From Timema cristinae (lineage: Eukaryota > Arthropoda > Insecta > Phasmatodea > Timematidae), in NCBI GenBank assembly GCA_039000515.1, contig JBCFYV010011164.1, forward strand, positions 48,046,704-48,110,703: DNA of 64,000 bases, in the 5' to 3' direction. Position 1 is the stretch's first letter. Each line of letters opens with the position of its first letter. The notes beneath the pieces were generated by a model. It did not search any database. It worked only from the letters and a program-made list of their open reading frames with translations, and had not been told where the DNA came from. The position numbers were made by a program, and so were the translations under genes. Shown piece by piece: positions 2,214-29,045 of the stretch.

Positions 2214-2225
2214 AATACCCAGCTT

Positions 2226-2395
2226 AAAAACTAGCTTAATTATAGAACAGACACAGCACCCGGTTCCTCGATCGTTAGTTCATCATTGTGGAAGGGGAAA
2301 TCCCACTCCTATAGTAATAAATTTTTCGGTCATGCTGGGAATCAGCCCGGGAACTTTAATTCATTAGAGACGCGATACCGTCTGAGCTTAGAAGT
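2226..2395 (-). mobile_element. SINE-D copy, diverged
   Basis: Reverse: GAACAGACACAGCACCCGG, GGGAATCAGCCCGGGAAC, CCGTCTGAGC. Confidence 0.65.
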
Positions 2396-2842
2396 CGGAC
2401 TTTCAGATCTTATGACCCGTGACCTTAAAGGAATGTTTTGTCAAAGCGAATTGATGGAAACCTAGCGTAGATATTGTCTCAATTTTATTTGTGTCAACTC
2501 TATCGCATTTTTACTATTGAAAGATAATGAATATGTTATTCGAATTTCACGGATTGCTCCTTGGCACGCGGCAACCTGGGAGACAACAGCTCACGAAATG
2601 TCACGGATTTTAAATCGATTATAGCACAACTACAAAAGTGACATTTTCTTTCTGTTACAATATTTGTTCAGTTCCAAGAAGAACTATATGCCGATTCTAG
2701 TTTTGTTAACTATTTTATACCTATTGCTATTCGAACTGATACTCTGCCCGGCTCTTGCTCGAGAAAGAGAAAGAGGTTCAAAACCCATCGGTGTCACTGT
2801 TCTAGTCTTTCTTACTACCTTTTCAGGCTACACACATAATAT

Positions 2843-3027
2843 GTAATAATTACGCTAAGGAGTTAGGGAAGAGGAATAATTAATTTAGAGGAAGTGTACT
2901 AAAATAGTGTGTAGGTTGAGTGGAAAACCATTTAGGAAAACCCACTCTCAGTACACCCAACAGGGTTTCAAACCCCGGTCTCCATGCCATCGGCAGTTTA
3001 GTATATTGCAAGAGTGACGCCTTAGAC
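2843..3027 (-). mobile_element. SINE-B copy, split by the hAT-like element at 3028
   Basis: Reverse copy with TTTAGAGGAAGTGTAC and GTGACGCCTTAGAC; the head resumes after 4195. Confidence 0.75.
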
Positions 3028-4195
3028 CAGGGGTGGGCAACATATGTTTCAATGTAGCATGTAGCCAATGTGGCGAATGAGAAGAGAAATTCGCCACACC
3101 ATGTAACAAATTGAGAAATTAGTTTGTTCAATCAAACATTTAAAACAACACACACTGTTTGAACCAATTTGTTCAAAACATGTACACTTTGACTACTTAG
3201 TTACAACTGCCTCAAAAGAAAATGATGAAAATTGTTCATATTGATAAGTAAATACAATTTAATAGGAAATTAGGTGACCTGGTGGTCTAGGGGTAAGGTG
3301 TCAGACTTCTATGCTGGCGGCCGGGGTTCAATCCCAGGTCCCGGCAAAGATTTATCTGATTACCAAACCCTTCCTTCACCTCTGACAAGAGATCTTGTGA
3401 ATGTGGGGAATGCCAGGCCTCCACCGTAGTTCGGATTCCACGTTAAACTGTAGGTCCTTCATTTCATCTCACTATCACCCTACCATTACACATTAGCGTA
3501 AGTGCGTATAACCCGAATGGGTAGTAAGACGCGGTGCTAATAATAATAATAATAATAATAGGAAATTAACAATCCTTTTTTCTGACAAGTTCCAGAAACA
3601 TTAACTGAATATCTGATCTGTGAGCTCGATGCACATTTTAGCTTTGCCTCCAAATTGACACCAACAATTCCAGATCTATGCTTTGAATTGATGAATCCCA
3701 TCGTAAAGAACACCAAGTCACACACCCACGTTGATTTAAACTGGGTCAATAATTTCGAAAAGCCTGATTTCAAAGTTGGGACATCGTTTATCAGTCCGAA
3801 TATATTTCCACATATCTGTGACTGAGATATTCTGATAGATTTTCAAGGGCTCCAAACTTTCAGTTCTTGTCCAAAGACAGAGGAATGGACATTTCTTTGA
3901 TTGAATTTGTAGTATCAAAGTGGAATAAATCCCGCAATTATTTAAATGCCAATTTGAAGTAATTGAAATCAGAAATTTGTAGGGTAGCGTTGGATTGTAG
4001 TGTCTAGTGTTGCTACAATGGCTCATTCAGAAAGTGTAATGCTTCCAATAAAATGCAGGAAATATCAAGATACAATCAGACACGCCACCAGGAAAAAGTT
4101 TATTTTACTGTGAGAAATGGCAAACTCAAATTCGTCATACTTTTACGGCCAATTCGCCAATTGTGGCGATTGGTGATAGGGTTGGCCACACAGGC
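3028..4195. mobile_element. Nonautonomous hAT-like element, candidate
   Basis: Starts with CAGGGGTGGGCAAC, a common hAT terminal motif, and ends with an imperfect inverse (...GGTTGGCCACACAG). The flanks GCCTTAGA and GCCTTAGG look like an 8-bp duplication inside a minus-strand SINE-B, whose sequence resumes after 4195. A SINE-A copy is nested at 3273-3556. Frames within (3570-4030) are not recognised. Confidence 0.5.
3273..3556 (+). mobile_element. SINE-A copy, full length
   Basis: tRNA-like head (GTGACCTGGTGGTCTAGGGG, B box GGTTCAATCC), unique body, and tail CCCGAATGGGTAGTAAGACG with (TAA)n. 12-bp duplication AATAGGAAATTA at 3261-3272 and 3557-3568. Confidence 0.95.
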
Positions 4196-4496
4196 CTTAG
4201 GCCATAGGCTAACAAAGCAGGTTTTAGTCATTGTTACTTTTCACTTTCACTTTAGTTTAATACCTTATCTCCGGTGAATAACAGTTGGGCCACGGGACCC
4301 CTTGTCTCAAAAGTTCATAGCTTAGTTGGGCCATGATCACTGACCAGAAGGATTATCGTTGTAGGTTAGTTGAGCCACGATCACTGAGCAGGATGATTAT
4401 CGACATAGATTAGTTGGGCCACGTTCATTGGCCAGGAGGACTATAACATATATTATACCTACGGGTAGATATAAATTCGGAGCTACCAAATTTTTT

Positions 4497-4595
4497 GGCT
4501 TATATTAGGTTAGGCTTGTTTAGGTTAGGTTAGAATAGGTTAGGTTTGGCTAGATTAGAATAGGTTAGGCTAGTTTAGGATAGGTTATACTATCT
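4497..4595. repeat. Degenerate TTAGG-type array
   Basis: About a dozen TTAGG or one-off units (for example TTTAGGTTAGGTTAG), the telomere repeat of many arthropods; an interstitial remnant. Confidence 0.55.
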
Positions 4596-4740
4596 TAGCA
4601 TTTTATGTGTCTCACTATCAATCAGTTGCTGTTTTATGTTCAGCTAGAGAAAACATTCTAATTGGAGCATCTGGGGCCGAGCAGTACACCAGTACGCTTG
4701 TTTACAATTCCTAAGAAGTAACTCGTGGCCCAACTGTAAT

Positions 4741-4953
4741 ATGACCCTTATCTCAGTTAGTAACACGCCTGCTTACTGAGCTAGGGTCCTCGTTTCGATT
4801 CCCCGGTATTGTAATTTTTTTTTACCATTAGTGATATTAATGGGAGAGCGGATACTGGTCTGTTTCAGAGCTAAGTTGGTTTGTAAGTCTAGTGCTGACA
4901 TAATATGTTGGTTCAGAAAATTCATTTTTAAGATATTTAATATTAAAATAAAT
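4741..4953 (+). mobile_element. SINE-D copy
   Basis: tRNA-like head (CAGTTAGTAACACG, TTTCGATTCCCC), body, and tail TTGGTTTGTAAGTCTAGTGC ... GGTTCAGAAAATTCA. Confidence 0.7.
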
Positions 4954-5184
4954 TATTCAAGAGAAGTGGGGCGTAGCATGTTGCCTGGATAAGCACAGTT
5001 TAGTTGAAGATGTTCCAGTGAATTGTTTTCACCGACTAAGTTAAACACTCATAGGCAAGATGGCCACGGCATTACATTATCACATTAGGTATGTAGAGCA
5101 GAGCAGATGCACGTTTCGTCAAATGAATGACCTAGATTGGCAGAACATATCACAAGTATCTCAACAGGTTCTAAGAATCAACTA

Positions 5185-5310
5185 GTCAAAGCTATTATCT
5201 TTGTTTTAGTAAGGATTTACTCCATCTAGACATCATATTCTGAAAATTGAAAAATGACACCTGAACACGGGAATCGAACCCGGCTAGACCTGGCGACATT
5301 CCACGAATTC
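5185..5310 (-). mobile_element. Partial tRNA-module element
   Basis: AGTCAAAGCTATTATC, TTTAGTAAGGATTTACTCCA and GAAAAATGACACCTGAACAC, then an inverted B box GGGAATCGAACCCGG. Confidence 0.7.
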
Positions 5311-5394
5311 CTTCTAACACCTTTTACAAAATAAAAAAAATAAAAATAGCACCCAAATGTTTGAATTTCAATTTATTTACCATAACAAGACAGT

Positions 5395-5632
5395 CATATA
5401 CCCTAGATAAGCTAGTAGGCTGTCTGTATAATGCTTAAGGGTCCCGGGTTAGATTCATTGCATGGCCAAATTATTTATCATTGGTGGAATGTGAGTTTCC
5501 CCTCTCATACTGATGGGCTAGCTGTCAGTATCCTGGTGTTGTGTCTGTTCTATATTTAAGTTAGTTTGTAAGTCATGTGCTGATGTAAGCATTCGATTCA
5601 CAAAGTGCACGTTAAATACCTCAAATGAAATA
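5395..5632 (+). mobile_element. SINE-D copy
   Basis: GGGTCCCGGGTTAGATTCA (B box), TGGTGTTGTGTCTGTTCTA, TTAGTTTGTAAGTC, CACAAAGTGCACGTTAAATA. Confidence 0.75.
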
Positions 5633-5724
5633 AAAAAATTAGCATAACAGGAAGACTAATTAACTTCAACATAAATTAACTGAGATTAAAATAAATCAAT
5701 CTTAAGGTGTGGTGGAAAGGGTGG

Positions 5725-5885
5725 GGGAAAGGCCAAGTTATTTGCGTTTTTTATAGCAAAACATGTCTTAGTCAAAATAAATAGAATATTTCTCCAATAG
5801 AAACATAGAGTGCTGTTTTCTTCACATGGTGATATAAACAGTTCTTAAATATTTATCAAGAGTGTTGTAATGAAATAGATTTTTA
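5725..5885 (+). repeat. Dispersed repeat R2, copy 1
   Basis: TTTTTTATAGCAAAACATG, CAAAATAAATAGAATATTTCTC, AACATAGAGTG and AAATATTTATCAAGAGTG recur in the other R2 copies. Confidence 0.65.
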
Positions 5886-6449
5886 TTTAATACTAATTTT
5901 AATCAAAAGTACCCAACCTTAATACATTTCCAATTAATGAATGGTTTCAGAAAATAAAACTGCAGTCACAGGTGTTAGGCAATCTTTTCACACCCCTAGG
6001 GGATATTTAATTTGTTTTTTTAGTTGTTGACAACCAAGCTCTTTTGCTCACAGTACCCCACCCATATTGAAAATACTTGTGAAACAAAATAGCTTCGAGA
6101 ACATTCTCTCTTTCTCTTTATTCCTTCTAGAACATGGCGCAACCTACAGAAAGATAGTATATTCCAGAACAATTTCTTTCAAAACATATACCCTAAAAGA
6201 AGACCCTTCTTTCATTCGGTCCACAACTTTATAGCAGGAATGGTCCACGACATAATAATCTAAAAATTTTACTTAACCTCCAATTTTAAATAAAAACTGT
6301 CTGCAATGCGTTGAGCTATCTAGCTTGAGCTGCCGCATTGTGTGTACAACAAACTTTAATCAACCTCTTTTAATTTAATAAAAATAAATTTCTGAAATTA
6401 AACGTTCTTCACTTATACATAGTATTAATACCGGACCCTTATAATCATC

Positions 6450-6779
6450 ATGCCAGATCCTAAAAAAGAGATTCCACAACAAGAGAGTCGACAACAACTC
6501 ACAAAAAACAAATTCCCGAGAAAACCTTTTCCCCTACAACTTGAATTTGACATAGTAGGAATTTCAATCAGGACTCCACGTAAGTTAAAAGCAAAACTCA
6601 ACAATTTGGCACCCAACATAGGTGTCGATCATTCCAAGCCCAGAAAAGAAATGGTGCACCACCTGCTGAATAACCGGAACGCGTATACAATGGTGAGACC
6701 AGAACCCGGGTCTACAAACAAGAAGCAGTTTAACCTAAAAGAGTATACTCAACATATACAGGACAAGTTCAAGGTATGA
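6450..6779 (+). CDS. Unrecognised 109-residue frame, basic, possibly 5' part of a gag-like gene
   Basis: Starts MPDPKKEIPQQ. It is rich in Lys, Pro and Gln, with FPLQLEFDIVGISIRTPRKL and a C-terminal NLKEYTQHIQDKF. No known domain seen. It lies 1 kb upstream of a gag-like segment on the same strand, so it may be the amino end of the same dead element. No signal peptide or membrane segment. Confidence 0.35.
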   Translation: MPDPKKEIPQQESRQQLTKNKFPRKPFPLQLEFDIVGISIRTPRKLKAKLNNLAPNIGVDHSKPRKEMVHHLLNNRNAYTMVRPEPGSTNKKQFNLKEYTQHIQDKFKV

Positions 6780-7769
6780 ACTCATAAACTAATAAGGGCA
6801 GATTTTAAAACATTCTTTATAAAATCCAATCAAGAAGAATCAAAATTCATAGTCAGTGATGTAGCTCATCCATATGTAGAAAATACACTCGAACCAATCT
6901 TAGAAAAATATCATTTTAAGGCTTTACTTTATTATAATAAAAAAAAGTTGTAGGGAAAATAGTGAGAACAGTGAAAAAGTAAATACAAGATTTGACGAGA
7001 TTAAGCCAGAAAATAAAGGAAGGATTAAAAGAAGAGTTTAAATTAAAAAAAAAAAATAGAACAGAGCACTAGGGAAGCTAAAAATCAATTTAGGAGTGTT
7101 GAGCTTAAGTATGAAAGGCGCAAGAATGAAAGCTTAGAGTTAAGGAAGGACTTTTAAAAAGAGATCCAGAACAATAAAAATGAAAATGAAGAAGAGATGC
7201 AGGTCAAAATCAGAATCATATGGGCAATTTTGATAAGAAATTAGAAACAATAATACAACACAAAAAATAATGATAACATTAGGATTATAGATGATTGTAG
7301 TAAACTAGGAAAACAAATTGCATGAGCAGTTGCAAAAATGAAAAAATGCAAAAGAAAGTTTAAAACATAGACAGGATACCCTAGATCCTAAGTTATTATT
7401 AGTGGAGGAGAGTTGTAATGAAAATTAACTGAAATAATAGAATAGGTTAACAATATGACGGACGGATTTGTAAATCTAGAAGAAAATATATAATAATAAT
7501 AATAATAATAATAATGTAGTGATAAGTTACGATTACAATATGAGCTTTTTGAAGGGCATATAGTACCAGATTTATACATACAGGAAATTGTGGACAATCA
7601 GTTAAATACATTGAAATATAATTTAACCGGAACTGTTGATAAAACGTCAGAAACAATAGAGCAGATGTGAAAACAGTAAGAGCTATCTCAATCAAAATAT
7701 TATGATCAAATTGTAGAAAGAGGGACATCGTTCCCTGTTGTTACTTTAATGTTACCAATTTCAGGTATT

Positions 7770-8300
7770 CAAAATCAATTGAAGGAGTCAGTACTCACCT
7801 TCAATGGAAATAATGCCAGGGTGATGCTGTAATATTTATATACAAAGTAGACAGATTTTTTGAAAATAGCAAACTTACGAAGGCACAAAAGTTAGCGTTT
7901 CTTACTCAAATTAATAGGTGAGACTGAGGTATGGATGAGCAGTCATGAAGCTGACCTATACCACATATGATACTATAAAATTAAATTTTAGTAAAAGATT
8001 TTGGTTTGTCTACAAACAAGATAAATTAGTATATTTTTACTGGGCATTATGAATCACACAAAGGACCTATGCGAATACTACAATAGTTATGCCATGGAAG
8101 CCGGGGATTTGGACACGCTTATTGATGAGGAAATATTAGTACAGCAGTTACTACATAATTTTCCTAGAGAAATACAGGACGCACTTATTGCTGCTAGACT
8201 ACTCGTAGTATTGAGATGAGGGAAATCCTTTTAATGAACGCTCTAGAGGGAAAGATCAAGACTACAAGCACAACGCTACAGTGTCCTGGAATGTAAGGAA
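7770..8300 (+). pseudogene. Decayed retrotransposon gag-like segment
   Basis: In mixed frames: FNGNNARVML, IFIYKVDRFFENSKLTKAQK with LAFLTQ, IGETEVWMSSHEADLYHTYD, then ILVQQLLHNFPREIQDALIAA and EMREILLMNAL. The pattern of a helix pair, an aromatic WM block and a closing P-R-E-I-Q-x-A-L is that of retrotransposon Gag capsids. Many stops. No RT was seen next to it. Confidence 0.5.
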
Positions 8301-8334
8301 CTTTTTATCTTATTTAAAAAAGTTCGTCATTTAA

Positions 8335-8600
8335 TGCCGCTATGTTCATGACAGATATTCAACAACTGTTCACCACGTTAAGAAACTTAAACTATGTTTG
8401 TTCTGAAGTAATATTTTATTTATTTTGGCCAAAAAAAGTTTTGATATAAAAACCGCAAAATCACATACCTTTTCTTGTACCACACATTTTAAAGGTGTTC
8501 GGACAAGTGCGTTAAGGGCGCCACTTACCTGAAGGAAAATACTCTCACACTGCGGTATTTGTTGCGAGAATTGAAGCAATAACAATTTAAAAACAATTCT
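8335..8600 (-). repeat. Dispersed repeat R2, copy 2, inverted
   Basis: Reverse of copy 1; together they bracket the gag-like region 6450-8300. Confidence 0.65.
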
Positions 8601-8773
8601 CAATTATTCAATTGGGACCTTATTAAAAATGACTATGTTTGACAAAGGCTGTTTCTTAACAGTTATTTTTATCTCAAAACTGCGAAATTTCACGTGTGAC
8701 GTATAATACGAGCTAATTTCACCTTTGTGGTGACTTGGGGTCTAATATAAGGTCCGAGAGTAAGTTTAAAAAG

Positions 8774-9010
8774 GTGTCTACTGAGCTAAGGATGTGGCGC
8801 GCAAGAAGCCTGACTATATAATAAGGTAATGGTTCGATTCTCGGCAGAGCCGTAAATTGTATAGTTGTTGAAATTGGGGTGCACCATTCCACAGTGTTAA
8901 ATTAATGACTAGGGAACTGGCGAGGTTTCTTCTCTCTAGAGGTGAGTTAGTTTTTAGGTCGTGAGCTGTTCTAATAAGATTTATTCATTAATTTGCACTT
9001 AATACTCGCA
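8774..9010 (+). mobile_element. SINE-D copy, diverged
   Basis: ACTGAGCTAAGGATG, GGTTCGATTCTCGGC (B box), then GAGTTAGTTTTTAGGTCGTG. Confidence 0.6.
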
Positions 9011-9380
9011 ATAAAACAATTTGAGATTGTCTAAATATAAGCATTAAATTAGAGTTTAAAGCAAAGAAATAATATACCAATCATACCTATTTGCTTAAAC
9101 TTATTTTTAACTGTAGCTATTAATTATTATTTAGTGAATTTCACGAAAATATGAACAAATAATAGATTTACCGTGTTATTTATTTACACTTTAATAATTA
9201 ATTTAATATATAATTTAGCTTTATTATTCACAGGAAAATTGTAATTTCACTTTCTATAAATTATTAGGGCATGCTTAGGGATGTGAAAAGTATATCGATA
9301 CTTTACTAATATTGATATTTTACTTTCAATACTAGTATTTTTTTACTCGATAATTTAGTATTCACACTTCGGTAGCGGAT

Positions 9381-9685
9381 CATTATTATTATTATCATCA
9401 TCATCATCACCACGTTTTACTACCCGTTCGGGTTATACGCACTTACGCTAATGTGTAATGGTAGGGTGATCGTGAGATTAAACGGAGGACCTACAGTTTA
9501 ACGTGGGATCCGAACCATGGTGGAGGCCTGGCATTCCCCACATTCACAATCTGTGATTAATACGCGTCTTGTCAGAGGTGAAGGAAGCGTTTGTAAATCA
9601 GATAAATCTATGCCGGGACCGAGGATTGAACCCGGACCCTAGCACAGAAGTCTAACACCTTACCCCCTAGACCACCGAGTCACCT
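9381..9685 (-). mobile_element. SINE-A copy
   Basis: Reverse copy with an ATT/ATC tail at 9382-9412 and tRNA-like head ending GGTCACC-like at 9685. About 10% diverged; no clear duplication. Confidence 0.9.
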
Positions 9686-9689
9686 GGGA

Positions 9690-10648
9690 TTGGTATCGAA
9701 AGAAACAACATTCTCGTTATCTTTACTCATGCTGGCAATGTTTACTGGGGAGGACTGTGGAGGAAGAACTCTTTTTTTTTTTCATGACAAGTAAGAAACA
9801 ACTCTAACATTCACTCTCTTCTAGATCATCATAATTCATAACTGTTCATCAATAAAGCCGCCTGGCCGAGAACGACAGGGAGATTGTTGTGATGACCAGT
9901 CTACAATCCTTTCCTTTATCAATTAGCAAAGTCATCACAAACAAAACAAAAATAAGCTTTGGTAGAAAGTCAATGAACTCAGTCAACAGTCAACTAAAGG
10001 GTGCCCTAAGCAAACAAAACAGAAAAGTTTATGTGCGTTTTGATAACGATACTTACTGTTGTCGATACTTTTCTTTCGATACTACTACGGTATCAATATT
10101 TTTCTTCCAATACTTCTAATGAGTACAGTATCGATGCTTTTCTTTCGATACTACATTCCTAAGCATGCTGAATATCAATGCACAATGGTGGTTGAGATCC
10201 TTGCAACACCTATCTCTTAGCTATGCCATATAAATCGAATGGGGTAGGTAAGCTTTAGGTGTGGCAAAGAGATGGGCAATGCTTATTTCTACCACTTGGA
10301 TCCCTAGCACAGGTCTCGGACTTACCAAAATTAATATATTCATACACAGGACGTCGCAAAGATAATTGATATACAGTGTATAGTATTGTAAAGGATGTAC
10401 AAAGAGGCGGTCCAGAACCCCCTGGAATTTATTGGAACCCTCCTTAAGGGGATCTACAGATACATATAGAAACTTATTGTTAAATCTTTTACTTTTACTA
10501 TAGTTTTAATATGTATGTCATTAACCAAATGCTAATTAATATAATCTTCAACTTCAAGATATACCCTGGAGAAGTACCGGTTTTATTTTAATACATTTTA
10601 TATGCCTTTAGTTCCCTACATTCAATATGTTATTGGAAAGCAAAGTAC
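9690..10648. other. Unassigned, no gene seen
   Basis: Short frames only. Repeated TCGATACTTTTCTTTCGATACT-like motifs at 10050-10155 are mirrored at 9296-9350 in inverted sense around the SINE-A copy. Confidence 0.5.
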
Positions 10649-10649
10649 G

Positions 10650-12125
10650 TTTCTTGTAATGAGCCGTATAATAAGTGAGATCCAAGAAAAGGAGACAAAC
10701 ATTTTTACTATCGTTTCTTGTAATGAGCCGTGTAAGTAAGTGAGGTCCAAGAAAAGGAGACAAACATTTTTACTATCGTTTCCTGTAATGAGCCGTGTAA
10801 GTAAGTGAGGTCCAAGAAAAGGAGACAATCATTTTTACTATCGTTTCTTGTAATGAGCCGTGTAAGTAAGTGAGGTCCAAGAAAAGGAGACAATCATTTT
10901 TACTATCGTTTCTTGTAATGAGCCGTGTAAGTGAGGTCCAAGAAAAGGAGACAATCATTTTTACTATCGTTTCTTGTAATGAGCCGTGTAAGTAAGTGAG
11001 GTCCAAGAAAAGGAGACAATCATTTTTACTATCGTTTCTTGTAATGAGCCGTGTAAGTAAGTGAGGTCCAAGAAAAGGAGACAAACTTTTTACTATCGTT
11101 TCTTGTAATGAGCCTTGTAAGTAAGTGAGGTCCAAGAAAAGGAGACAAAACATTTTTACTATCGTTTCTTGTAATGAGCCGTGTAATAAGTGAGATCCAA
11201 GAAAAGAAGACAAACATTTTTACTGTCGTTTCTTGTAATGAGCCGTGTAATAAGTGAGGTCCAAGAAAAGGAGACAAACATTTTTACTATCGTGTGTTGT
11301 AATGAGCCGTGTAAGTAAGTGAGGTCCAAGAAAAGGAAACAGACATTTTTACTATCGTTTCTTGTAATGAGCCTTGTAAGTAAGTGAGGTCCAAGAAAAG
11401 GAGACAAACATTTTTACTATCGTTTCTTGTAATGAGCCGTGTAATAAGTGAGGTCCAAGAAAAGGAGGCAAACATTTTTACTATCGTTTCTTGTAATGAG
11501 CCGTGTAAGTGAGGTCCAAGCAAAGGAAACCAACATTTTTACTATCGTTTCTTGTAATGAGCCGTGTAAGTAAGTGAGGTACAAGAAAAGGAGACAAACA
11601 TTTTTACTATCGTTTCTTGTAATGAGCCGTGTAATAAGTGAGGTCCAAGAAAAGGAGACAAACATTTTTACTATCGTTTCTTGTAATGAGCCGTGTGAGT
11701 AAGTGAGGTCCAAGAAAAGGAAACAAACATTTTTACTATCGTTTCTTGTAATGAGCCGTGTAAGTGAGGTCCAAAAAGGAGGAAAACATTTTTACTATCG
11801 TTTCTTGTATAATGAGACTCTATGTTTAAGTAAGTGAGGTCCAAGAAAAGGAGACAAACATTTTTACTATCGTTTCTTGTAATGAGCCGTGTAAGTGAAG
11901 TCCAAGAAAAGGAGACAAACATTTTTACTATCGTTTCTTGTAATGAGCCGTGTAGTAAGTGAGGTCCAAGAAAAGGAAACAAACATTTTTACTATCGTTT
12001 CTTGTAATGAGCCGTGTAGTAAGTGAGGTCCAATAAAAGGAGGCAAACATTTTTACTATCGTTTCTTGTAATGAGCCGTGTAAGTAAGTGAGGTCCAAGC
12101 AAAGGAAACAAACATTTTTACTATC
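10650..12125. repeat. 65-bp minisatellite, about 23 copies
   Basis: Unit of about 65 bp (contains CTTGTAATGAGCCGTGTAAG and GTCCAAGAAAAGGAGACAAA). Variant lengths arise mainly from presence or absence of a 3-4 base step in GTAAGTAAGTGAGG. One irregular insert lies at 11810-11830. Overlapping minus-strand frames are a by-product; 65 is not a multiple of three. Confidence 0.95.
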
Positions 12126-12504
12126 AGCTCTAAAATCTTACTTGGGAACAGCTTGAATACCCACCCAAATTATATCAACATACACACTTACTCAAAATAT
12201 TATTTTGTAGCCATGTAAAGTTACAAGGTTACTATTTGTGAAGGTTGTGCTAAAGAAGGGAATCAGTGGTAAAATAGTAGTGGCCTGTTGCTAAAATAAT
12301 ATTAGTGCCAGTTACATGAAAATATGTCAAACATAGATATACGCTTCACACCTTGTTAGTAAGAGAACCCCAGCAGAAACTTTTCCCTGCGAGACACCAA
12401 AGAAGGTGAGATGTTTTTAATTCTTTATTTCACACGCGTTTTACTATATGTTCAGTTACACGTGTTAAAGTAGGCTTATAATTATACTATTGTTGTAAGA
12501 ATAA

Positions 12505-12665
12505 TAAAGGTAGAATGTAGAGGAAGTGTAGCCGCGTTTGTGTGGGGTATAGTGGGAAACCATTTTGTAAAAAGACCCTGGGTACACTCAGCCGGGCTTC
12601 AAACCTAGACATCTCTGTCTCCGGCAAACCACACTTAATGATCTTGACCATGTGCTTACTGGCGT
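12505..12665 (-). mobile_element. SINE-B copy, diverged
   Basis: Reverse copy: AATGTAGAGGAAGTGTAGCC, then CAGCCGGGCTTCAAACC, the inverted B box. Confidence 0.7.
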
Positions 12666-12669
12666 GAGC

Positions 12670-13920
12670 AGTAATATATAACTGCTAATAATTAAGAAAA
12701 TTATATTTCTGTCATTTTAAGATAATATTATTGTTATATAATTTTACATTTTTTACAAAACGCTTTTATTTTTTTAACATAGGCCTACCTATTTTTACTT
12801 TCTCATAATTATAAGGATTATTATAATCATGAAAAATTTATATCTCAAGATTATTATGATAATATGCATTTATTGTGCTCCGCAACCTCAAATTGTATTT
12901 GGAAATTATGTGTGTCCCTCGGTTTGTCTGTCTGTATCTGGTACAACAACCGAAATGGTTTGATGTATTTTGTTATAACTTTATATTTAGTTATTATTTT
13001 AGTTTCATTTTAGTTCTGGTCCTTAGAATAGGCATTGTTTATTGATCAAAATTTATGAAAAATTTTAAAGTCTTGAAAATGTCTAAAAATTTTTGTTTGA
13101 AAATGGATGTCCGGAGTGTATTTGACATGACAAATAAGATTATATGCTTGTATTTTTGGCGAAAATTTGCTTAACGTTAGCGTACTAAATATTAATTTTT
13201 GAAAATTAGAGATGTTTCAAGAAAAGGGCTTTAATGATTTTATTAATTAAGTAGGCTATATCTTAGGATTGTTTGAGATTATAAAACAGAACTGTATGGT
13301 TGTTTTTCAGAGAAAAATTGATCTATAGGTACGTTACATATGATTGTTATTTTTTTTGATTAAAAATATTTCGATAATTCCTTCAAATTTGAAATCTAGT
13401 CAATGATAAATAGGGCCTACGTATATAACCAAATAATCATTTTTCAGGGATTTTTAAAAATTATTTTATAGGAGTTTACTAATTACCTATGGATTTAAAT
13501 TCAACAATATCGAAATAACTCTAGTGATTTGGTTCAAAACTAATATATGGCTACTGTTTTAAATTTTAAATAGGATTAATATTTCTTTTTTAAATTTAAG
13601 AGTATTTTAATTGATTTAAAACGTTCTGGTAAATAGTTAATATAAGAATTTTGTTCAGAATTTATATTTGAAGAGTGATTTCACACGGTGATCAAAAGTA
13701 TATGTTTATTTTTCTTAAGAAAACTTATTAAAGATTTCTTTATTAACAACATATTTTTTTAAGTTTTGCTACAAATTATAATATACTATATTATAAAGTG
13801 ATTGTGACGTACCATTTATTACATAATATCTTTTCTTAAAATTTACTTCAAGAACAATTTATCTATAATATAACATTTTATCAGTCACCTTATCGACTGA
13901 GCTGTTAAATATTTAAACTC
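12670..13920. other. Unassigned AT-rich stretch
   Basis: Nothing coding. CCTCGGTTTGTCTGTCTGTATC at 12918 resembles the start of common arthropod dispersed repeats. Confidence 0.5.
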
Positions 13921-13989
13921 TTCAGTCTCCACATTTGGTAAGGGCGTGGAAAGTGGGAGCTCGGTGGTCCAGACCACCCTTGGAATTTG

Positions 13990-14210
13990 ATGAACCTACT
14001 AGGGGGTCCATACACACACATACACATATACACACATGCACCACACACATATATATGTATACATATATATACATATATTTATATATATACATATATTTAT
14101 ATATATCATATATATATACACATATATGTATACATATACATATATATACACCACACACATACATACATATATAATATATATAATATAATAAAAGTACTTT
14201 ATATATATAA
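13990..14210. repeat. CA/TA microsatellite
   Basis: Long ACATATATATACAC-type tract, then two copies of AAAAGTACTTTATATAT. Confidence 0.95.
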
Positions 14211-14673
14211 AAAGTACTTTTATTGGTTAAAGTTAACTGCAGGCAAAATTTCGAATGTACCCCGCCCCCCTTAGAAAAAATATCTTTCTACCTAACAAGA
14301 TAGAATAGTTTCATTACAAAATGCATTTCACTTCGACCAATGAGGCGTGTGAGGTTTGGTTAGAGGCCCCCCACCCCCATCTCCACCCTTTCCACGTATT
14401 GGCACTCTTCTCAATGAACCCTTGAGTTTCGCTAGCATTTAACTTGATATTTATTTACTAAAATACGTGGTGCAATCTTGAGGCGTAGCTCTCCCCCTAC
14501 CCCCCCATGACACTTCTCTCAACTCCCGCAGCTTAAATCACTTCCCTGACGTAGTTACAATGCATTTTATAATAAATATGATGACCTTGAAATTATTACA
14601 TATGCTTTTAAATCACAGCATTGCATTTGTAACATTATTTATATCTTATGAGTATATCTAATCTATATATATA

Positions 14674-14697
14674 TTTTGTGTGTGTGTGTGTGTGTGC
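14674..14697. repeat. GT microsatellite in the first opsin intron
   Basis: (GT)n starting 9 bases into the intron of the opsin-like gene (on the minus strand AC repeats). Confidence 0.9.
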
Positions 14698-14700
14698 CTG

Positions 14701-14707
14701 TCTTACT
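14701..14707 (-). promoter_or_regulatory. Splice donor after TM1 of the opsin-like gene
   Basis: The exon ends ...ATCAA and the intron begins GTAAGA, a canonical 5' splice site. It is phase 2, splitting the residue after the TM1 segment. No acceptor followed by a TM2-like exon was found at lower coordinates, so the intron would exceed 14.7 kb. Confidence 0.7.
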
Positions 14708-17700
14708 TGATGAACATGGCGATGACAAGCAGGTTCCCACCAACACCAGCTGACAAGATCACGCAGTAGATGGCGGCAAGGCAGTAGTGCGCCATGGGGT
14801 CAGGAGGCTCGAACTGCAGCCAATGAGGGTTGATGCTCAGCAGGTAGTTGTCCGTGAAGAAGCCGTGAGACTTCCACGACGACACCGGCCATCGACTCCG
14901 GAACTGCTCCAACAAGGCAGCTCTCCCCTCTGACTTGGGATCTTGTTCTAGGGTCGTCGTGTTAGGAGAATATGAAGCTCCAGGAGGTGTCACAGAAGTG
15001 CGAGATAGGTTCGCCTCGGGAGGGTATTGTGATTCGATTCTCACTTTGAATATATTGGTCGATGCTAGTTGGAGCCCAGAACTCACTTCTGTTAGGGTTG
15101 TTTTTACTCCATGGGTAGTTATGGTGCTAGAACCGACACCTCCAAACTTCGGTTCATGTTGATACATCGCAGTTGAAGGGAAATTTTTCATCCCAGATGT
15201 CACTTGATCCTCTTTAGGTGTTGATAAAAGTGCATGCAAAATTTATCCCTAAGGGTTGGGATACTTTTGAACTATCCCCTCCAAGCAGAGATGATATTGT
15301 TGGATTCGTTGTAGAAATTTTAGCAATGTCGAGCTTGTCCAATAAGCCTGGATCATCAGTTGAAGTTAAAACACTCGATTGACTTTTTAGCGAGCTTGTA
15401 TGAACGATAGTAGTTTCAGGAAGCACCTGTACTTTACTTTTGATTTCTGCCCGGGTGAAGTTATAAAGTCTGTTAAATCTGAATTCTGGTTGGTGTAACG
15501 TGTATCCCCATCGTAGCCTACTTTCGATTGGAATATTTCTGACAACGGTGTTGTATTAAAAACAAAACCTAAAGGCACGACTGTATCCAAATGAACATTG
15601 CTTGTTATTTTTATGGTTTGATTTTCCACCTCTAAGAAATTAGTTTGCATCTTTGGTTCGTAAGTTGAAGTTGATTCGGCTTCGTCATCTCCCTGAAGTG
15701 TGTTTTCTGTTGATACTTCAGATTGAAACATCGATGGGAAGTTTTTATTTGTATGTGTGGTTGTTATTTGTAGTTTCGATGAGGATGTTGTTGGTCTATG
15801 GGGTTGTTTGTAAAGTTTTATCGTCGCCTGTGTCCAATCGTAGCTTTTTGTTGAGGGTGGTAGCCCCATTTCACTCTGTGCGATGATGCTTGGTGTTTTG
15901 TTTTGTATCGTTGGAACAATCTCAGTCTGGCTGGGTCTACCCTTCGGCAGTGTTTGGACCAACCTGGTATTTCCAATTATGAATGAGACGTTAAGGGGGA
16001 CAGTACTCGTTTGTAATAGCTCCGACAATTTAATCGATTCACTGAGAACTTTGGTCGGATGTTTGAGGATGGGGTTTCGCCTGGTATTGGAAATAGATGG
16101 GGTTACAGGTTTCAAATTTAAGTTATCCTTATTGTTGGTATCATATTTAAATCCCTATAAAAATCCATGTTTAATACATTTCCTAATATCCAGAAAAATT
16201 TCTGTCTGGATTAATCGTTTGCCAAAAAAGTTTAGATAAATAAAACGAAGACTTGAAAATAGTTTCTCTTAAATCTTCTATTAAATTATGTGAACTCTCC
16301 CTTTTCGTGCGAATAAAATAGTTTTGGTTTTTCACAACTTTAGGGTCATCCAATTTAGTAGTATTTAAAGTAGTTACTGTTTTATTGAGGTTAGTGGCTA
16401 GTAAGGATGATGCAATTAAATGGTTTAATCTATTTTCTCTTGACTTTTACTAAAACTTTTGTCTAGTATTTTTGTTGGAGTAATCTTTCTAAGAATAGAA
16501 TGAGCACTTAAATTTAAATACGAACTTATAATGTGAGTTATTTTGTATACTTGTAATCTACACCCGTTCTTTACAGATGGCACGTGATGCAATTTAAATG
16601 ATGGGGTAAAAATTAGGTAAATAAAAACATTTTTGTTGAGTTTGCATTTCATTTGGTTGATAAATAGTGGATAGTGTTTTATAAAACACTTTTGTAAATT
16701 TCCGTAAGTTAAAATGGCTTTAAATTTGGGAGTGTTAAAGATCCATTCAACGTATTTAATGACCACCAAAACTGATATATTCTCTTTGATCCCATCAAAT
16801 TTAATTGATGAACTTGATGTCTGGTATTTTATGAAATGTAGCAAAGGATTTATTTTGGGATTAACATTAATTATATTTTCACTCCACAAGCAAAACAAAT
16901 TGAAATTACTGATAGAATTCATAAGCAGTGATGCAGTATTTGTCGATGGGAATGAAACTAATTTTATTATTTTATCCATGTAAAAAAACAATGGTGACGT
17001 ATTTGTTCAGCTATTTTCTTGCCATGTGAAACTTTTCCAGACGGATTTTTTTTTAACGGGACAAGTAAAATGACATTTTTTGTACTTCTAGGGGAAACAA
17101 ACACTTCAAAGAACTTCCCTCTAAGTTTGTAGAAGAGTGATAACGGTGTTGAATCTATTCTTTTGCCATTGAACAAGCTCCAAGACAAAGTTGAATGTTT
17201 TCTCTCTCTCCGTAATGAAATAAAAGATGACCTCTCGTTCCTTTCTCTTTTATTTCGAATGAAAGGTAGGGGATTGAAAATAGTTTCAAGGTAACTAGCT
17301 CCAGTTTGTCGATGGGCACTATTCCCATTGATGGGGTTATGTAATTTAGGTTTGTTCTTTATTTTTTGGGGGGTGAATAGTTTTTCATAATCGTTTGAGT
17401 ATTTAGCCAAATAAAGGGTATAAATAGTTTTCATCTCATTTTTTAATCGGTCTAATGTAGCTACTGAGCTTATTCTACTATAAACAGGCCTTGAAATCAT
17501 TAGAAATTGATACGGATCACTGCTTTATCAATTTCACAGTCAAGAAAATGCTTTTATTATTAAAATATTTTTCTAAAAATAGTAGAGTATTAAAACAATT
17601 TTTTTCTCTGTATATTGATTTGAAAAACATTTTATCTTGTGTATAAAACTGAGACTTCTTGTGTGAGTTCACCAATTGATGCAGGTTTTTAAGTTCAAAA

Positions 17701-18124
17701 CTGTACTTTGGTTTGTTATGACATATTTGTTGTTTGAAGGTGAGTTTGAACACGGAAACTTTAAACAAAGCCGAAGGTAACATTTTGTGGCATCTCCTAG
17801 TAAAACAAGAGATACCGCACATTTCTTCTTCCTTTCTTCTCGTGACTAAAGATGAAAGATCAAACTTGGGAGAAGCGAAACTTTGAACGAGTTTTTTATA
17901 TAATAGTTTTGGAAATTTTTTGTAAATAATTCTGATATATTATTTCTAATTAAAAAAACGTTTTTGGACAGATTTAAGGCTAAGTTTTGAGTTCTTATTG
18001 CCCTAATAAGTTTGTGTTCAAACTCTCTGCCACTTACGAGATCACTTTCTGTCCCGTTTAAAGAAAACACTCTCTGTATAACGATCCAAATCAAAGCACT
18101 TAGTATCACTTGCGCACACTTCAT
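14707..18124 (-). CDS. Opsin-like GPCR, large 5' coding exon with signal peptide and giant extracellular N-terminus (partial, frame-broken)
   Basis: Predicted light-sensing or opsin-derived receptor; only the N-terminus through TM1 is present. The last 45 residues carry the rhabdomeric-opsin signature before TM1 (His-Trp, a PP-D-P turn) and a TM1 with the Gly-Asn of helix 1 (GGNLLVIAMF). The exon stops at a GTAAGA donor. At the other end is a Kozak-perfect ATG and a signal peptide (MKCAQVILSALIWIVIQRVFS). In between, open frames abut or overlap: 18124-17846, ~17880-17517, ~17510-16967, 16991-16425, 16440-16185, ~16160-15387, ~15440-15214 and ~15236-14707. Most switches fall in A/T runs, for example the T7 at 16982-16988. 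The 3' third is Ser/Thr/Asn-rich with NxT/S sites, as expected of a glycosylated stalk. Inference: about 1,140 codons, far longer than usual opsin N-termini; Rh7- or arthropsin-like is possible. Alternatives are a decayed gene, or two fused loci. Confidence 0.6.
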
Positions 18125-18130
18125 GGCGGC
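18121..18130 (-). promoter_or_regulatory. Kozak context of the opsin-like gene start
   Basis: On the minus strand the start reads GCCGCCATGA, the full vertebrate/arthropod-type Kozak consensus, and it is followed at once by a hydrophobic signal peptide. This decides the start over the open frame that extends about 16 codons further upstream without another ATG. Confidence 0.65.
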
Positions 18131-18539
18131 TCTAGTTGGAAACAGAGTATGGGCAATTAGTAACACTCCCAAATAATGATCATGTACAGTACATGTTGCA
18201 AAATATTAATAATCAAACTATCCTTTTGGCTAGTAAATATACATAAATGCCCATATTTAATTTGTCAAAGTATATTTCAGATAAATGTTGAATAGTTGTC
18301 CAAGACACACGTGTTAGTTGCACGAGACGAGGTAGTCCCCGTGTATGGGGAAAACGCCTAAAGCTAATTTAGATTTATATATAAGGTTTGCACTGCGTCT
18401 TACTGCCCATCCGGTTATCCACATTTAATTACACTAATGAGGTATGGACAGTGAAGGTATAATTGGGAAAGAACAAACCAACATTTGAATGAAGGCACAA
18501 TGGCAAACTGTTTACGATTATTATCCTTAGTCTTTTTAT

Positions 18540-22854: not shown

Positions 22855-24170
22855 AGATTACTGCGAACAACATTTAGTTTGACAGGGTTAATGAGCTTAA
22901 ATATTTAGAAACCATCTTAACAAGCAATAACGCCGTTATAATGGAAATTAGGAGAAGAATACAGTCAAGAAATGCATGCTACAATTCTGTCAGAAAGTTG
23001 TTAACCTCTCGCCTGCTTTCAAAGAATGTAAACTGAGAATATACCAGACAAATTTTTTACCGATTGTTCTCTATGCTTGTGAAACGTGGTATCTTACCTA
23101 ACATGACGAGAACAAGATTAGGATGTTCGAAAACAAGGTAGGCCTACTTAGGAAAATATTTCGTTTAAAAAATGATGAGGATACTGGGGAGTGGAGGAGG
23201 TTACATAATGACAAGTGACATACCTTTTACTCATCACATGTCATTGTTAGGATGATCAAGTCTCGTAGATTACTGTGGGCAGGACATGCAGTGTGAATGG
23301 GAGAATCTAGAACCTTGTTCAGAGTACAGACTGGCAAACCCGATGGGAATAAACCATTGGAAAGACCTAGACGTTGATGTGAGGATAACAAACATTATTA
23401 TGAACCTGAAAAATATAGGGTGTAGTGAGGTGGACTGGATAGAACTAGCTCAATATACGGATAGGGTGAAATGAGGTGGACTGGACAGAACTAGCTCAAG
23501 ATAGGGATTGGGTGTGATGAGAGTAACTGGATAGAACTAGCTCAAGGTAGGAGTAGGGTGTAATGAAGAGGACTAGATAGAACTATCTCAAGATAAAGAT
23601 ATGATGTAATGAGGTGGACTGGACAGAACTAGCTCAAGATAGGGATACGGTGTAATGAGAGTGACTGGATAGAACTAGCTCAAGGTAGGAGTAGGGTGTA
23701 ATGAAGAGGACTAGATAGAACTATCTCAAGATAAAGATATGATGTAATGAGGTGGACTGGACAGAACTAGCTCAAGATAGGGATACGGTGTAATGAGAGT
23801 GACTGGATAGAACTAGCTCAAGGTAGGAGTAGGGTGTAATGAAGAGGACTAGATAGAACTATCTCAAGATAAAGATATGATGTAATGAAGTGTACTGGAT
23901 TGAACTAGCTCAAGATAGGAGTAGGGTGTATTGAGGTGGAATAGATAGAGCTATCTCAAGATAAAGATATAATGTAATGAGGTGGACTGGATTGAACTAG
24001 ATCAAGATAAGAGTAGGGTGTATTGAGGTGGAATAGATAGAGCTATCTCAAGATAGTGATAGGGTGTAATGAGAGGGACTGGGTAGAACTATCTCAGGAT
24101 AGGAATAGGTGGCGTACTTTTGTAGGTGCGGCAATGAGCTTTCGAGTTATTTATGCCAGAGAGTAATTAA
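22855..24170 (+). pseudogene. LINE ORF2 3' end with internal tandem expansion
   Basis: Translates, with stops, to the thumb and C-terminal region of a non-LTR RT: ELKYLETILTSNNAV, RNACYNSVRKLLTSRLL, LPIVLYACETWYLT, ENKV...LRKIF, EDTGEWRRLHND, then a downstream frame 23286-23474 ending IGCSEVDWIELAQ. The natural last residues (RWRTFVGAAMSFRVIYARE and a stop) are still present at about 24108-24166. Between the two, the motif has been amplified into a tandem array. Related to RTE-like LINEs by this C-terminal pattern, though clade is not certain. Confidence 0.75.
23400..24110 (+). repeat. 46-bp minisatellite with 138-bp higher-order unit
   Basis: Monomer about 46 bp around AGAACTAGCTCAAGATAGG and GGTGTAATGAGG. 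Three variant monomers form a 138-bp unit; its start CTGGACAGAACTAGC recurs at 23481, 23619 and 23757. The 3' part is more degenerate. The monomer equals the LINE codons for GCSEVDWIELAQ plus neighbours. Confidence 0.9.
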
Positions 24171-24329: not shown

Positions 24330-27095
24330 CAGTGGCGGCTCGTGTATAGGCACTGTGGAACTGCAGCACCCCCTATTTCCACTTGATATTATCGGTAACA
24401 TTTAATATAATGAGTCCTTTTTTCTTTAATTCTTTCTTTATTTTTGCAGTACAATATATATTCCTTAAGCTTAATGTCAGTACTTCAGTAGCCATCCCCC
24501 AGTTTATGAAAAATATACAAAAAATCTTTGTGTGGAACTGTGTGCCTCACAGTGCCAACGACGTGGTGTTTGACTGTTGTGCGCATGCACACATAGGAGG
24601 GGAGTGGGGAGGAAGGTGAGACTGCTAGGTAGATAGAATACTGTTGCTCTCGAAGCTCCGGCTCTGGCGTGATGGTGGAAGGAATTTTTTTTTTTTACTC
24701 AGCGTGTGTTGTGCTTAAAAACCATATTCATGAATGTGATAAACTGTAGAAGAGTGTAGAATTAGATTATTATTCTGCTTCCAGCTAGTCTATTTTATTC
24801 ATTTATTTCGGTTCATTTATTTAACAGAAAACTTTAACCATGGCCTTGTATCCCCAATAAATAAGTTCTGTGACTGTAAGTGAACTTCAACAGCTTAAGT
24901 TTTCACCGCTATCACTCCAAGAGAAAGTTATAGTTAAGAAAAGAGGTCGTTCAACACCTGATATTATAATATATCAGCCAGGCAAAAGCAACAACAAGAA
25001 ACATATTCGTAGCTTTAATTCTGAATGGTACCAACGAAAAAGTTGGCTTTGCGGCTGTGAAGTAAAAAATGCACTCTTTTGGTTCCCATGTTTGCTGTTT
25101 GGAGGTGATGTACCGTGGACAAAAAATGGTTTTAGAAATATTAACAAAATGAAAGAAAAAACTAAAACGCATAAGAAGTCAAAAAAGCACGTTGATAATG
25201 TTGTTTCACTGTTCCTTTTAGGAAACGTAGGTATTAAGGATAAACTTAGGCATACAGACTTTCAATCAATGATCATATTATAAAAGTTAAAAAGAAACGT
25301 GAAAATTTGTCCAAAATAATAGATTGCATTTACTTTTGTGGAAACTTTGAAACTCCCTTACGTGGACATGATGAAAAAGACGATTCAGTAAATCTAGTGG
25401 TATTTAGAGGATTAGTAAATTTTGCATCTAAATTAGATTCAGATTTGAAGAATCACTTAGAAACCAGTGCAGTCTTCAAAGGTGTTTCTAAGACCATTAA
25501 GAATGAGATACTTGACTGCCTGCTACAAATATACCATGAGGAGATAAGGGCGGATATTAGAAAAGCTTTATTTGTAACTGTCATGGATGATGACACAATA
25601 GATGTTTCGGAACACACTCAAATGGTATGGTACGTATTGAATGGAGAAATATTTGAGCATTTTTGGGGATTCTTTATTCCAGAAAATCAAACTGCAGATG
25701 GCATATAAACACATATTTTAGAACAATTGGACACAATCCTTCAAGGAAATGAACAAAAACTGATAGCTCAGACATTTTTTGGTGCAAATGTCATGAAAGG
25801 CAAAAAAGCAGGAGTTCAAGCAAAAATAAAAGCAGTTTATATGAATACATATTTCATTCACTGTTATGCACATCAACTTAATTTAATAATGCAGCAAGTA
25901 TTACATGAAACGAAATAATTTTTTTCTCTAACATTCTGGCTATTCCAACATTCTTCTCAGGATCACCAGAACGTGTGTCCATTCTCAAGAAACATATGGA
26001 CCTCAGCATTCTACGTCCATCCTCTACAAGGTGTAATTTCAACATAAGGGCCATAAACAGAGTTCATGAAAATTTGAAACCATTAAAAAACTGCCTTACT
26101 GAAATTCAGTCAACATCAAATGCAGATTAAACCATTGCAGAAGCAACAGGAATTTTAAAATAGCTCAATGATGATAATTTCTATTTTGGTTAGAGTTTTT
26201 TCATGAGATTATGCTTCATGTTGAAATAATTTACAACCAAATGCAATCTCGAGAAATTAGTATGTTTAAAGTTAGTGAATATATAACAAATTTCAAAATT
26301 GCTATTTTAAAATTGAGAAACTCAAAGTACTCTTAGAATCCTTCAAAGACACTCATGGCAGAAGCTAAAGAAGTGTGTGACTATATATGTGTTGATATAC
26401 TGGACAGATATTCTTCCACTAAACACTTAGTAGCTGCTAAATTGTTCAACAAGAATTGCTTCACTAGATTTAAGAATGAACATCCCACAAAATAGATAGG
26501 ACTGACAACTGAAGCTTATCCCATGATTGACAAAGAAAAGCTTGAAGCTTAACTAAAAGTATTCTACTGTAGGACTGATATTCATGAATATTGCAAATTA
26601 ATTGAGATGCTGAAATTTATATTGTAAAATAATCTAGATGGTGTTTTAGTGAAATTACGAAACTGATAAAAATCCTTTTGACAATTCTCATGACTATATC
26701 AGAGGCAGAGCGCTGCTTTTCAACATTGAAAAGAATAAAAAAAAAATTAAGAAGCACTATGAATTCGGAAAGACTAAATGCGCTTTAAGTATTTTCAATG
26801 GAGAAAAATTCCCTCAATTGTCATCCAGAGATTAAGGAGAAAATTATTGAATTTATTGCGCAAATTAAAATAAGAAGAATGGATTTCATTTTTAAATGAA
26901 TAGATCAAGCTGTAACTGTAACAATTTAAGTTAAAGTAAGTAAAAATGGCGTGTTTTTTTTGTTAAGATTTTTTCAAGTTCCTGAATAAATTTTCTCTTT
27001 ATACATGTTTTTTTTTCCTTTTACACAATTTTAAAACAAAGGCTAAAAATATCTGGAGCAGCACCCCCACTAATTTTAGCTACGAGCCGCCACTG
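24330..27095 (+). mobile_element. hAT transposon, ZMYM1-like, with TIRs and TSD
   Basis: Terminal inverted repeats CAGTGGCGGCTCGT (24330) and ACGAGCCGCCACTG (ending 27095), followed inward on both sides by GCAGCACCCCC. The 8-bp flanks ATGATAGT (24322-24329) and ATCATAGT (27096-27103) match 7 of 8. It interrupts a tRNA-like SINE (about 24255-24329 and 27096-27125), right at its B-box-like GTTCAAATC. Confidence 0.9.
24842..26900 (+). pseudogene. hAT transposase remnant, TTF finger + DUF4371 + dimerisation domain
   Basis: 24870-25283 encodes a TTF-type zinc finger (W-L-C-G-C ... LFWFPCLLFGG). 25307-25918 encodes the DUF4371/RNase H-like part (DDDTIDVSEHTQ, HCYAHQLNLIMQ). About 26690-26790 encodes the C-terminal dimerisation motif (SEAERCFSTLKRIKKKLR). 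Multiple stops and frameshifts separate these pieces, one at an A9 run (26738-26746). The family moves by cut-and-paste with an RNase H-fold DDE core. This copy cannot make a whole protein. Confidence 0.85.
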
Positions 27096-28929: not shown

Positions 28930-29045
28930 GATAACATTAGAATGAACCTGAAGGAAATATGAATAGGGTGTAATTAGGTGGACTTGACAGAACTAGCTCA
29001 AGATAGGGTGTAATGAGTTGGACTTGATAAAACGAGCTAGTTAGG
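28930..29045 (+). repeat. Second LINE-end fragment with two copies of the 46-bp motif
   Basis: GATAACATTAGAATGAACC leads into two copies of the GTGTAATNAGGTGGACTTGA / AACTAGCTCAAGATAGG motif, matching 23380-23520. It is a short, dispersed relative of the array. Confidence 0.65.

What the first reader, a model, noticed from the sequence alone, without database searches (positions are those of the whole stretch)
14707..18124. Opsin-like receptor with a roughly 1,100-residue secreted-type ectodomain in one giant exon
Seen: Kozak ATG, signal peptide, 3.4 kb of abutting open frames, then opsin-type TM1 and a GTAAGA donor. Known: opsin N-termini are usually a few dozen residues, Rh7-type ones somewhat longer, and they lack cleaved signal peptides as a rule. 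Inference: a receptor combining a large Ser/Thr-rich, glycosylated stalk with an opsin core, architecturally closer to adhesion-type GPCRs. I know of no described opsin like this.
Basis: partly seen in the sequence, partly recalled or inferred. Interest (0 to 1): 0.88.

Follow-up and report, generated by a model that had tools for sequence, protein, structure and literature searches.

The report
Insect opsin exon with giant ectodomain
One very large exon of a probable insect light-receptor (opsin) gene appears to encode a signal peptide and hundreds to about a thousand residues outside the cell before the first membrane helix; a cockroach has a related protein, but here the reading frame is interrupted and the rest of the receptor lies outside the sequence seen.

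Summary
On the minus strand, 18124-14707 is unusually open: 9 stop-free pieces, against 37.9 +/- 4.3 (minimum 25) in 500 order-2 resamplings. It is bounded by a strong-Kozak ATG with a signal-peptide-like start and by a GTAAGA donor directly after an opsin-type TM1. The frame is broken at least seven times, so no single protein runs through it as assembled.

A two-sequence TM1 profile finds Kumopsin1, a spider rhodopsin, first (1.8e-5). The last 76 residues find one relative (E 6.4e-20, 57% identity; 65 candidates, lengths about 265-841 aa): cockroach Diploptera punctata L9F63_022553, a 545-residue partial model ending at the same TM1 boundary behind ~490 S/T/N-rich residues. A long ectodomain before this TM1 thus appears in two species' records, and the window is probably from an insect, not a chelicerate.

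Unproved: the helix-7 lysine (no TM2-7 exon detected within 14.7 kb downstream), the opsin class (Rh7-like suspected), whether the 5' 1.9 kb belongs to the protein, and whether the frame breaks are assembly errors or decay. N-glycosylation sites here are at chance. No adhesion-GPCR domain was found.

The parts
18062..18124 (-). start codon (18124-18122) in strong Kozak context and signal-peptide-like segment (MKCAQVILSALIWIVIQRVFS)
   Evidence: crude signal-peptide rule met, background 18 of 370 ATGs
17849..18205 (-). open frame piece 1 (coordinate mod 3 = 1), 119 aa, holds the ATG
17520..17939 (-). open frame piece 2 (mod 3 = 2), 140 aa
16970..17524 (-). open frame piece 3 (mod 3 = 1), 185 aa
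16428..17006 (-). open frame piece 4 (mod 3 = 2), 193 aa
16186..16446 (-). open frame piece 5 (mod 3 = 0), 87 aa; followed by 31 bases before piece 6
15390..16154 (-). open frame piece 6 (mod 3 = 2), 255 aa, Ser/Thr-rich ectodomain
   Evidence: joined with the next two pieces, codon-position bias beyond 300 null sequences
15217..15555 (-). open frame piece 7 (mod 3 = 0), 113 aa, Ser/Thr-rich ectodomain
14706..15242 (-). open frame piece 8 (mod 3 = 2), 179 aa: end of ectodomain and TM1
14706..14915 (-). 70-residue conserved segment (pre-TM1, NPHWLQF and TM1) shared with the Diploptera protein P0001, 40 of 70 identical, no gap
14811..14831 (-). NPHWLQF motif, aligned to the HW motif of Kumopsin1 and of the 2ziy/2z73/4ww3 rhodopsins
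14706..14798 (-). transmembrane helix 1 (GN motif included)
   Evidence: hydropathy; the homologous stretch of P0001 is the only confident part of its model
14701..14706 (-). splice donor GTAAGA; exon ends at 14707 in phase 2
   Evidence: P0001 ends at the same place

Best explanation
This is the first coding exon (ectodomain plus TM1) of an r-type opsin gene of an insect, orthologous or closely related to Diploptera punctata L9F63_022553. Shown: an opsin-like TM1 with a donor directly behind it, preceded by a protein-like open stretch reaching a Kozak ATG 3.4 kb upstream, and a cockroach gene model with about 490 residues ahead of the same TM1. Inferred: a cleaved signal peptide brings a long, mostly disordered, Ser/Thr-rich tail into the ER lumen and then outside the photoreceptor membrane, where it acts as a tether, spacer or partner-binding stalk in front of an otherwise ordinary G-protein-coupled opsin core encoded by exons more than 14.7 kb further downstream. 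Most likely class: Rh7-like (about 50%, a guess). The copy seen here is interrupted in frame. Whether through consensus errors or gene decay is open.
For: Frame openness beyond chance over the whole stretch and in its 5' part alone, with boundaries at ATG/signal peptide and at the donor. The TM1 profile hits Kumopsin1 at 1.8e-5; the five opsin rows align from profile position 30-38 on, through the HW motif (positions 41-42), while the other GPCR rows shown begin at 45 or later, except two neuromedin-U receptor 2 rows that begin at 40 (60 of 106 rows shown). The single relative found by the search with the last 76 residues has the same layout and the same exon end. TM-like peaks only at the two ends of the composite. 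Codon-position bias in the 3' half. Drosophila Rh7 already has a 115-residue N-terminus, twice that of Rh1-Rh6 (PMC5018682, passages read).
Against: Outside the last 75 residues the two ectodomains do not align (Smith-Waterman 66 against 65.0 +/- 9.8 for shuffles; 83 of 200 shuffles reach it). No long relative was found by two searches (composite residues 500-1135 against proteins of about 624-1,986 aa, 7,972 candidates; TM1 words against about 594-1,890 aa, 1,293 candidates; none at E <= 10). Residues 1-499 of the composite were never used as a query in that database. The 5' half lacks codon-position bias. At least 7 frame breaks. TM2-7 not detected. P0001 is an unverified partial gene model of unknown exon structure. 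With P0001 as the query, three opioid-receptor rows also begin at or before the HW motif, at E 0.088, 0.13 and 0.71.
Confidence: 0.62

Rival explanations
1. A decayed copy: the gene once encoded the long-ectodomain opsin, but in this genome it is a pseudogene, or its ectodomain frame has been lost; the core may be lost too. (Compatible with the best explanation as to what the exon is; the odds given here and there overlap.)
For: At least 7 frame switches plus one further lesion in 3.4 kb, against one or two in 4.8 kb of the neighbouring gypsy element (conditional P 0.005-0.031), which argues against a uniform assembly error rate. Five of the seven switch intervals hold no A or T run of six or more. 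No TM2-7 exon detected in the window.
Against: Few or no in-frame stops: with 8 lesions and 8 substitutions per indel about 4 nonsense changes are expected, at most 1 seen (P 0.09; 0.40 at ratio 4). Two of the seven switch intervals do hold runs of 6-7 A or T, as consensus errors would. The last 179 codons, including TM1, are one intact frame and TM1 is well conserved. A gypsy element is a multi-copy yardstick and not an ideal one.
Confidence: 0.4
2. An ordinary Rh7-like opsin with an N-terminus of about 100-160 residues, starting inside the last intact frame or spliced to an upstream small exon; the upstream 5' frames are a relic or another transcript.
For: The last frame (15242-14706) is intact and holds in-frame ATGs; Drosophila Rh7 has a 115-residue N-terminus. 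The 5' half lacks codon-position bias.
Against: The open chain continues to 18.2 kb, and codon-position bias is measured over the joined 481 codons of the 3' half. The Diploptera model carries ~490 residues before the TM1.
Confidence: 0.25
3. A non-opsin class A receptor with an opsin-like TM1.
For: Opioid and other peptide receptors also match TM1 weakly (E 0.03 upward; 0.088 upward); the helix-7 lysine was not seen.
Against: The two top rows in each of the three structure searches are Kumopsin1, with the 2ziy/2z73/4ww3 rhodopsins among the next rows (third to fifth, below one opioid receptor and one unrelated lipoprotein).
Confidence: 0.1

Closest known systems
Diploptera punctata hypothetical protein L9F63_022553 (partial, 545 aa; P0001)
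   Same: 40 of 70 identical over pre-TM1 and TM1; ends at the same exon boundary; about 490 S/T/N-rich residues before TM1
   Different: Ectodomain not alignable; its model is open over 545 residues whereas the window's frame is broken; it is partial, and about 1,085 ectodomain residues are implied in the window
Drosophila Rhodopsin 7 (Rh7) group
   Same: Opsin with an extended N-terminus (115 residues, twice that of Rh1-Rh6; PMC5018682, passages)
   Different: Here 480 to ~1,085 residues with a signal-peptide-like start; no Rh7 sequence was at hand to test membership
Kumopsin1 (9epp, 6i9k; jumping spider, source recalled) and rhodopsin 2ziy/2z73/4ww3 (squid, source recalled)
   Same: HW motif and TM1 align (E 1.8e-5 and 0.024 with the two-sequence profile)
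   Different: The solved chains have only 8-26 and 9-17 residues before the match
Adhesion-type GPCRs
   Same: Signal peptide and a large extracellular region (architecture only, comparison recalled)
   Different: No adhesion-GPCR domain in the ectodomain pieces; TM1 is of opsin type

Membership tests
r-type opsin | HW motif and TM1 with GN, closest to r-opsins | tested here: met
   Kumopsin1 holds the first two rows in each
r-type opsin | retinal-binding lysine in helix 7 | tested here: inconclusive
   no 7tm match in window 1-14700, six frames, Pfam at E <= 1 (the same mode finds gypsy and hAT domains, but its sensitivity to single opsin exons was not measured); own-genome search unanswered
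r-type opsin | LRTPxN in first cytoplasmic loop, DRY motif, helix-7 motif | tested here: inconclusive
   pattern scan of the whole window, six frames: two LRTPxN-like and two DRY-like matches, none convincing in context, no helix-7 match; the exons are probably outside the window
Rh7 opsins | N-terminus much longer than in visual opsins | tested here: met
   at least the last intact frame, probably 480 to ~1,085 residues
Rh7 opsins | placement in the Rh7 clade; absence of the QAKK motif | not testable with these tools
   only TM1 is held and no Rh7 sequence was fetched
adhesion GPCR | GAIN/GPS domain in the ectodomain | tested here: not met
   no such Pfam match at E <= 10 in the eight ORF pieces or in P0001; the only two matches were PdxJ (0.047, P0001) and IgD2_Trs65 (0.13, piece 6), both under their cut-offs. 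A domain split by the frame breaks could be missed
adhesion GPCR | class B2 seven-helix domain | tested here: not met
   TM1 matches class A opsins first; other helices not seen

The most novel reading that the evidence does not exclude
A lineage of insect opsins, present at least in cockroaches and in the source of this window, carries a signal peptide and a fast-evolving, disordered ectodomain of about 500 to 1,100 residues encoded in one giant first exon: a light receptor combined with an extracellular stalk that could serve adhesion, spacing or protein-protein sensing.
Probability: 0.4. Interest if true: 0.85.

Novelty: new variant of a known kind. Interest (0 to 1): 0.66.

Why it matters
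Opsins are generally compact receptors with N-termini of a few dozen residues (45-58 in Drosophila Rh1-Rh6, 115 in Rh7; PMC5018682 passages). An opsin with a secreted-type ectodomain of hundreds of residues would imply a second, non-photic role (adhesion, tethering, partner recognition) for a photoreceptor protein and would need a different route into the membrane. It would also warn that automatic annotation can cut such genes short: the cockroach model is a partial hypothetical protein without an opsin label.

Tried and rejected
Chelicerate origin: dropped after the only strong relative proved to be a cockroach. Glycosylated stalk: sequons at chance in the window, mildly above it in P0001. 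Adhesion-GPCR domains: none. Mobile-element origin of the upstream frames: no such Pfam match in the pieces, no similar DNA elsewhere in the window (blastn, E <= 1e-3, dust on). Small introns as the general cause of the frame switches: rejected because consecutive pieces overlap or abut, with one 31-base gap. Absence of extra TM peaks in the ectodomain: not significant, 18% of shuffles have none. Opsin promoter motif (recalled consensus): 33 matches with one mismatch in the window, none exact, 30.9 expected. Viral-contig scans: no relatives. tRNA and Rfam scans of the window: nothing. Fold of P0001 from a single sequence: mean pLDDT 34.6, only TM1 confident, uninformative for the ectodomain. 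Literature: ten full-text searches (in one search only 15 of 1,126 papers were listed) showed no paper that I recognised as describing an opsin with an ectodomain of hundreds of residues; I saw listings with abstract starts, and passages of seven papers, no whole text. Not done: proteins shorter than about 265 aa were never searched in the large protein database, and composite residues 1-499 were never a query there; all 3 searches are spent.

Full report
What is there. On the minus strand, open frames fill 18205-14703: pieces of 119, 140, 185, 193, 87, 255, 113 and 179 codons, overlapping or abutting except for 31 bases (16185-16155) where only the third frame is open. Counting the least number of stop-free pieces needed to cross 14706-18124 gives 9, against 37.9 +/- 4.3 (minimum 25) in 500 order-2 Markov resamplings; the 5' 1.9 kb alone needs 5 against 25.1 (minimum 13), and the 3' 1.5 kb needs 4 against 13.2 (minimum 7). 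Of 244 tiles of 3,419 bp on both strands, the lowest seven overlap the gypsy element and the next two this exon. None of 503 tiles of 1,925 bp outside the exon and the region beyond 54.9 kb is as open as the 5' part (minimum 12, at hAT remnants). In 400-bp steps the openness begins at about 18.2 kb and ends at 14.7 kb.

Boundaries. The first ATG of the first piece, at 18124, stands in GCCGCCATGA and opens with MKCAQVILSALIWIVIQRVFS, which looks like a signal peptide; by a crude rule 18 of 370 window ATGs with 32 open codons do so, so this is supportive but modest. The 3' end is an opsin-like TM1 followed in phase 2 by GTAAGA, with an in-frame stop if not spliced. Hydropathy of the 1,135-residue composite shows TM-like peaks only at residues 1-25 and 1105-1135, though 18% of shuffled ectodomains also have none.

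Coding character. Codon-position bias is strong in the 3' 1.44 kb (chi-square 33.3; null mean 9.0, maximum 24.7; 0 of 300 reach it), but the 5' 1.89 kb is not beyond stop-free random sequence (15.3 against 12.8; 89 of 300 reach it). The 5' part is thus open beyond chance but compositionally plain. I hold its membership in the protein likely, not shown.

Frame breaks. The reading frame changes at least seven times and one junction needs a further lesion, so ATG 18124 is not in frame with TM1 as assembled. Two of the seven switch intervals contain runs of 6-7 A or T; the other five do not, and one of them is only a few bases long. The neighbouring gypsy element shows two frame changes in 4.8 kb, one of which may be the natural gag-pol shift (inference); counted as one or two against seven or eight, the density difference has conditional P between 0.005 and 0.031. 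Against decay, at most one in-frame stop is seen where 2 to 8 would be expected, depending on the substitution-to-indel ratio assumed. The cause stays open.

Identity. The last frame alone matches Kumopsin1 and the 2ziy/2z73/4ww3 rhodopsins as the best five of six listed chains, weakly (E 0.11-0.2). The Diploptera protein gives Kumopsin1 at 3.6e-4, then a lipoprotein match in its ectodomain (0.04), an opioid receptor (0.088) and the other rhodopsins (0.12-0.17). A two-sequence profile gives 1.8e-5 and 2.6e-5 for Kumopsin1, 0.024 for 2ziy and 0.031 upward for opioid receptors (106 sequences at E <= 10, 60 shown). In one search the opsin rows run through the HW motif, the other GPCR rows shown start behind it except two neuromedin-U receptor 2 rows; three opioid-receptor rows start at or before it. 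Pfam's 7tm model does not report TM1 alone. That Kumopsin1 is from a jumping spider and 2ziy/2z73/4ww3 from squid is recalled.

Relative elsewhere. Searching the last 76 residues (proteins of about 265-841 aa, 65 candidates) gave one hit: Diploptera punctata L9F63_022553, partial, 545 aa, E 6.4e-20 for a database of 5.77 billion; 40 of 70 residues are identical without gap and the two end at the same place. About 490 residues rich in S/T (21%) and N (12%) precede its TM1. The ectodomains do not align beyond chance. Searches aimed at longer proteins found nothing at E <= 10 (about 624-1,986 aa, 7,972 candidates, about 594-1,890 aa, 1,293 candidates). Shorter proteins were not searched, nor composite residues 1-499. 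Hence the source is probably an insect, perhaps of the cockroach and stick-insect assemblage (Polyneoptera). I also recall, from no call, that the dispersed repeat reading ...[10 protein letters not shown]... / ...[10 protein letters not shown]... resembles translations seen in Timema stick insects; this is a lead only.

Rest of the receptor. Six-frame Pfam scans of 1-14700 at E <= 1 gave nothing, while the same mode recovers reverse transcriptase, RNase H, integrase, gag and hAT domains elsewhere in the window; its sensitivity to a single opsin exon was not measured. Motif scans found no convincing first-loop, DRY or helix-7 site. The TM1 intron is therefore probably longer than 14.7 kb, or the core is missing. 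The own-genome search was busy at all 17 tries.

Mechanism. Inferred: a long N-terminal tail needs a cleavable signal peptide for co-translational translocation; the mature protein would show a disordered Ser/Thr-rich stalk on the outer face of the photoreceptor membrane and an opsin core in the membrane. Fast divergence of the stalk with conservation only of the 70 residues next to and in TM1 fits a spacer or tether rather than an enzyme or rigid ligand-binding domain. Rh7 is the best guess for class because Drosophila Rh7 already has an extended N-terminus for which partner interactions have been proposed (PMC5018682 and PMC5537319, passages); membership could not be tested.

Verdict. A real and unusual feature, a new variant of a known kind if the opsin core is confirmed. 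The strongest independent support is the cockroach protein; the strongest doubts are the broken frame and the unseen six helices.

Noticed in passing
window 54972-62299, minus strand: A long Ty3/gypsy element with largely open gag and pol (RT, RNase H, integrase), flanked by direct repeats with the same ORFs and the same 39-bp tandem array 6,588 bases apart, presumably its LTRs. Its gag ORF holds a PHD-finger match (E 1.2e-05) besides capsid domains.
   Followed up: partly
window 24801-26900 and 49901-52300, plus strand: Two degenerate hAT transposase remnants (Dimer_Tnp_hAT E 1.3e-06, and 0.0062 which is under the family's cut-off; DUF4371 at 0.0017, also under its cut-off, in the first).
   Followed up: partly
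window 10648-12125: Minisatellite of a 65-bp unit, 23 copies, 92% matches, in the putative TM1 intron.
   Followed up: no
window 23415-24109, 28963-29038 and 47706-48143: Further minisatellites: 46-bp unit (15 copies) with a related 40-bp pair at 28963, and a 101-bp unit (4.3 copies).
   Followed up: no
window about 2038-2280, 3467-3600, 49197-49574 and 50754-51149, minus strand: A dispersed repeat reading [10 protein letters not shown] and, in some copies, [10 protein letters not shown]; resembles, from recall only, repeats translated in Timema stick-insect gene models.
   Followed up: no
window 35144-35488, plus strand: A 115-codon open frame that looks like a mariner-type transposase fragment (the name is recalled, not from a call).
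   Followed up: no
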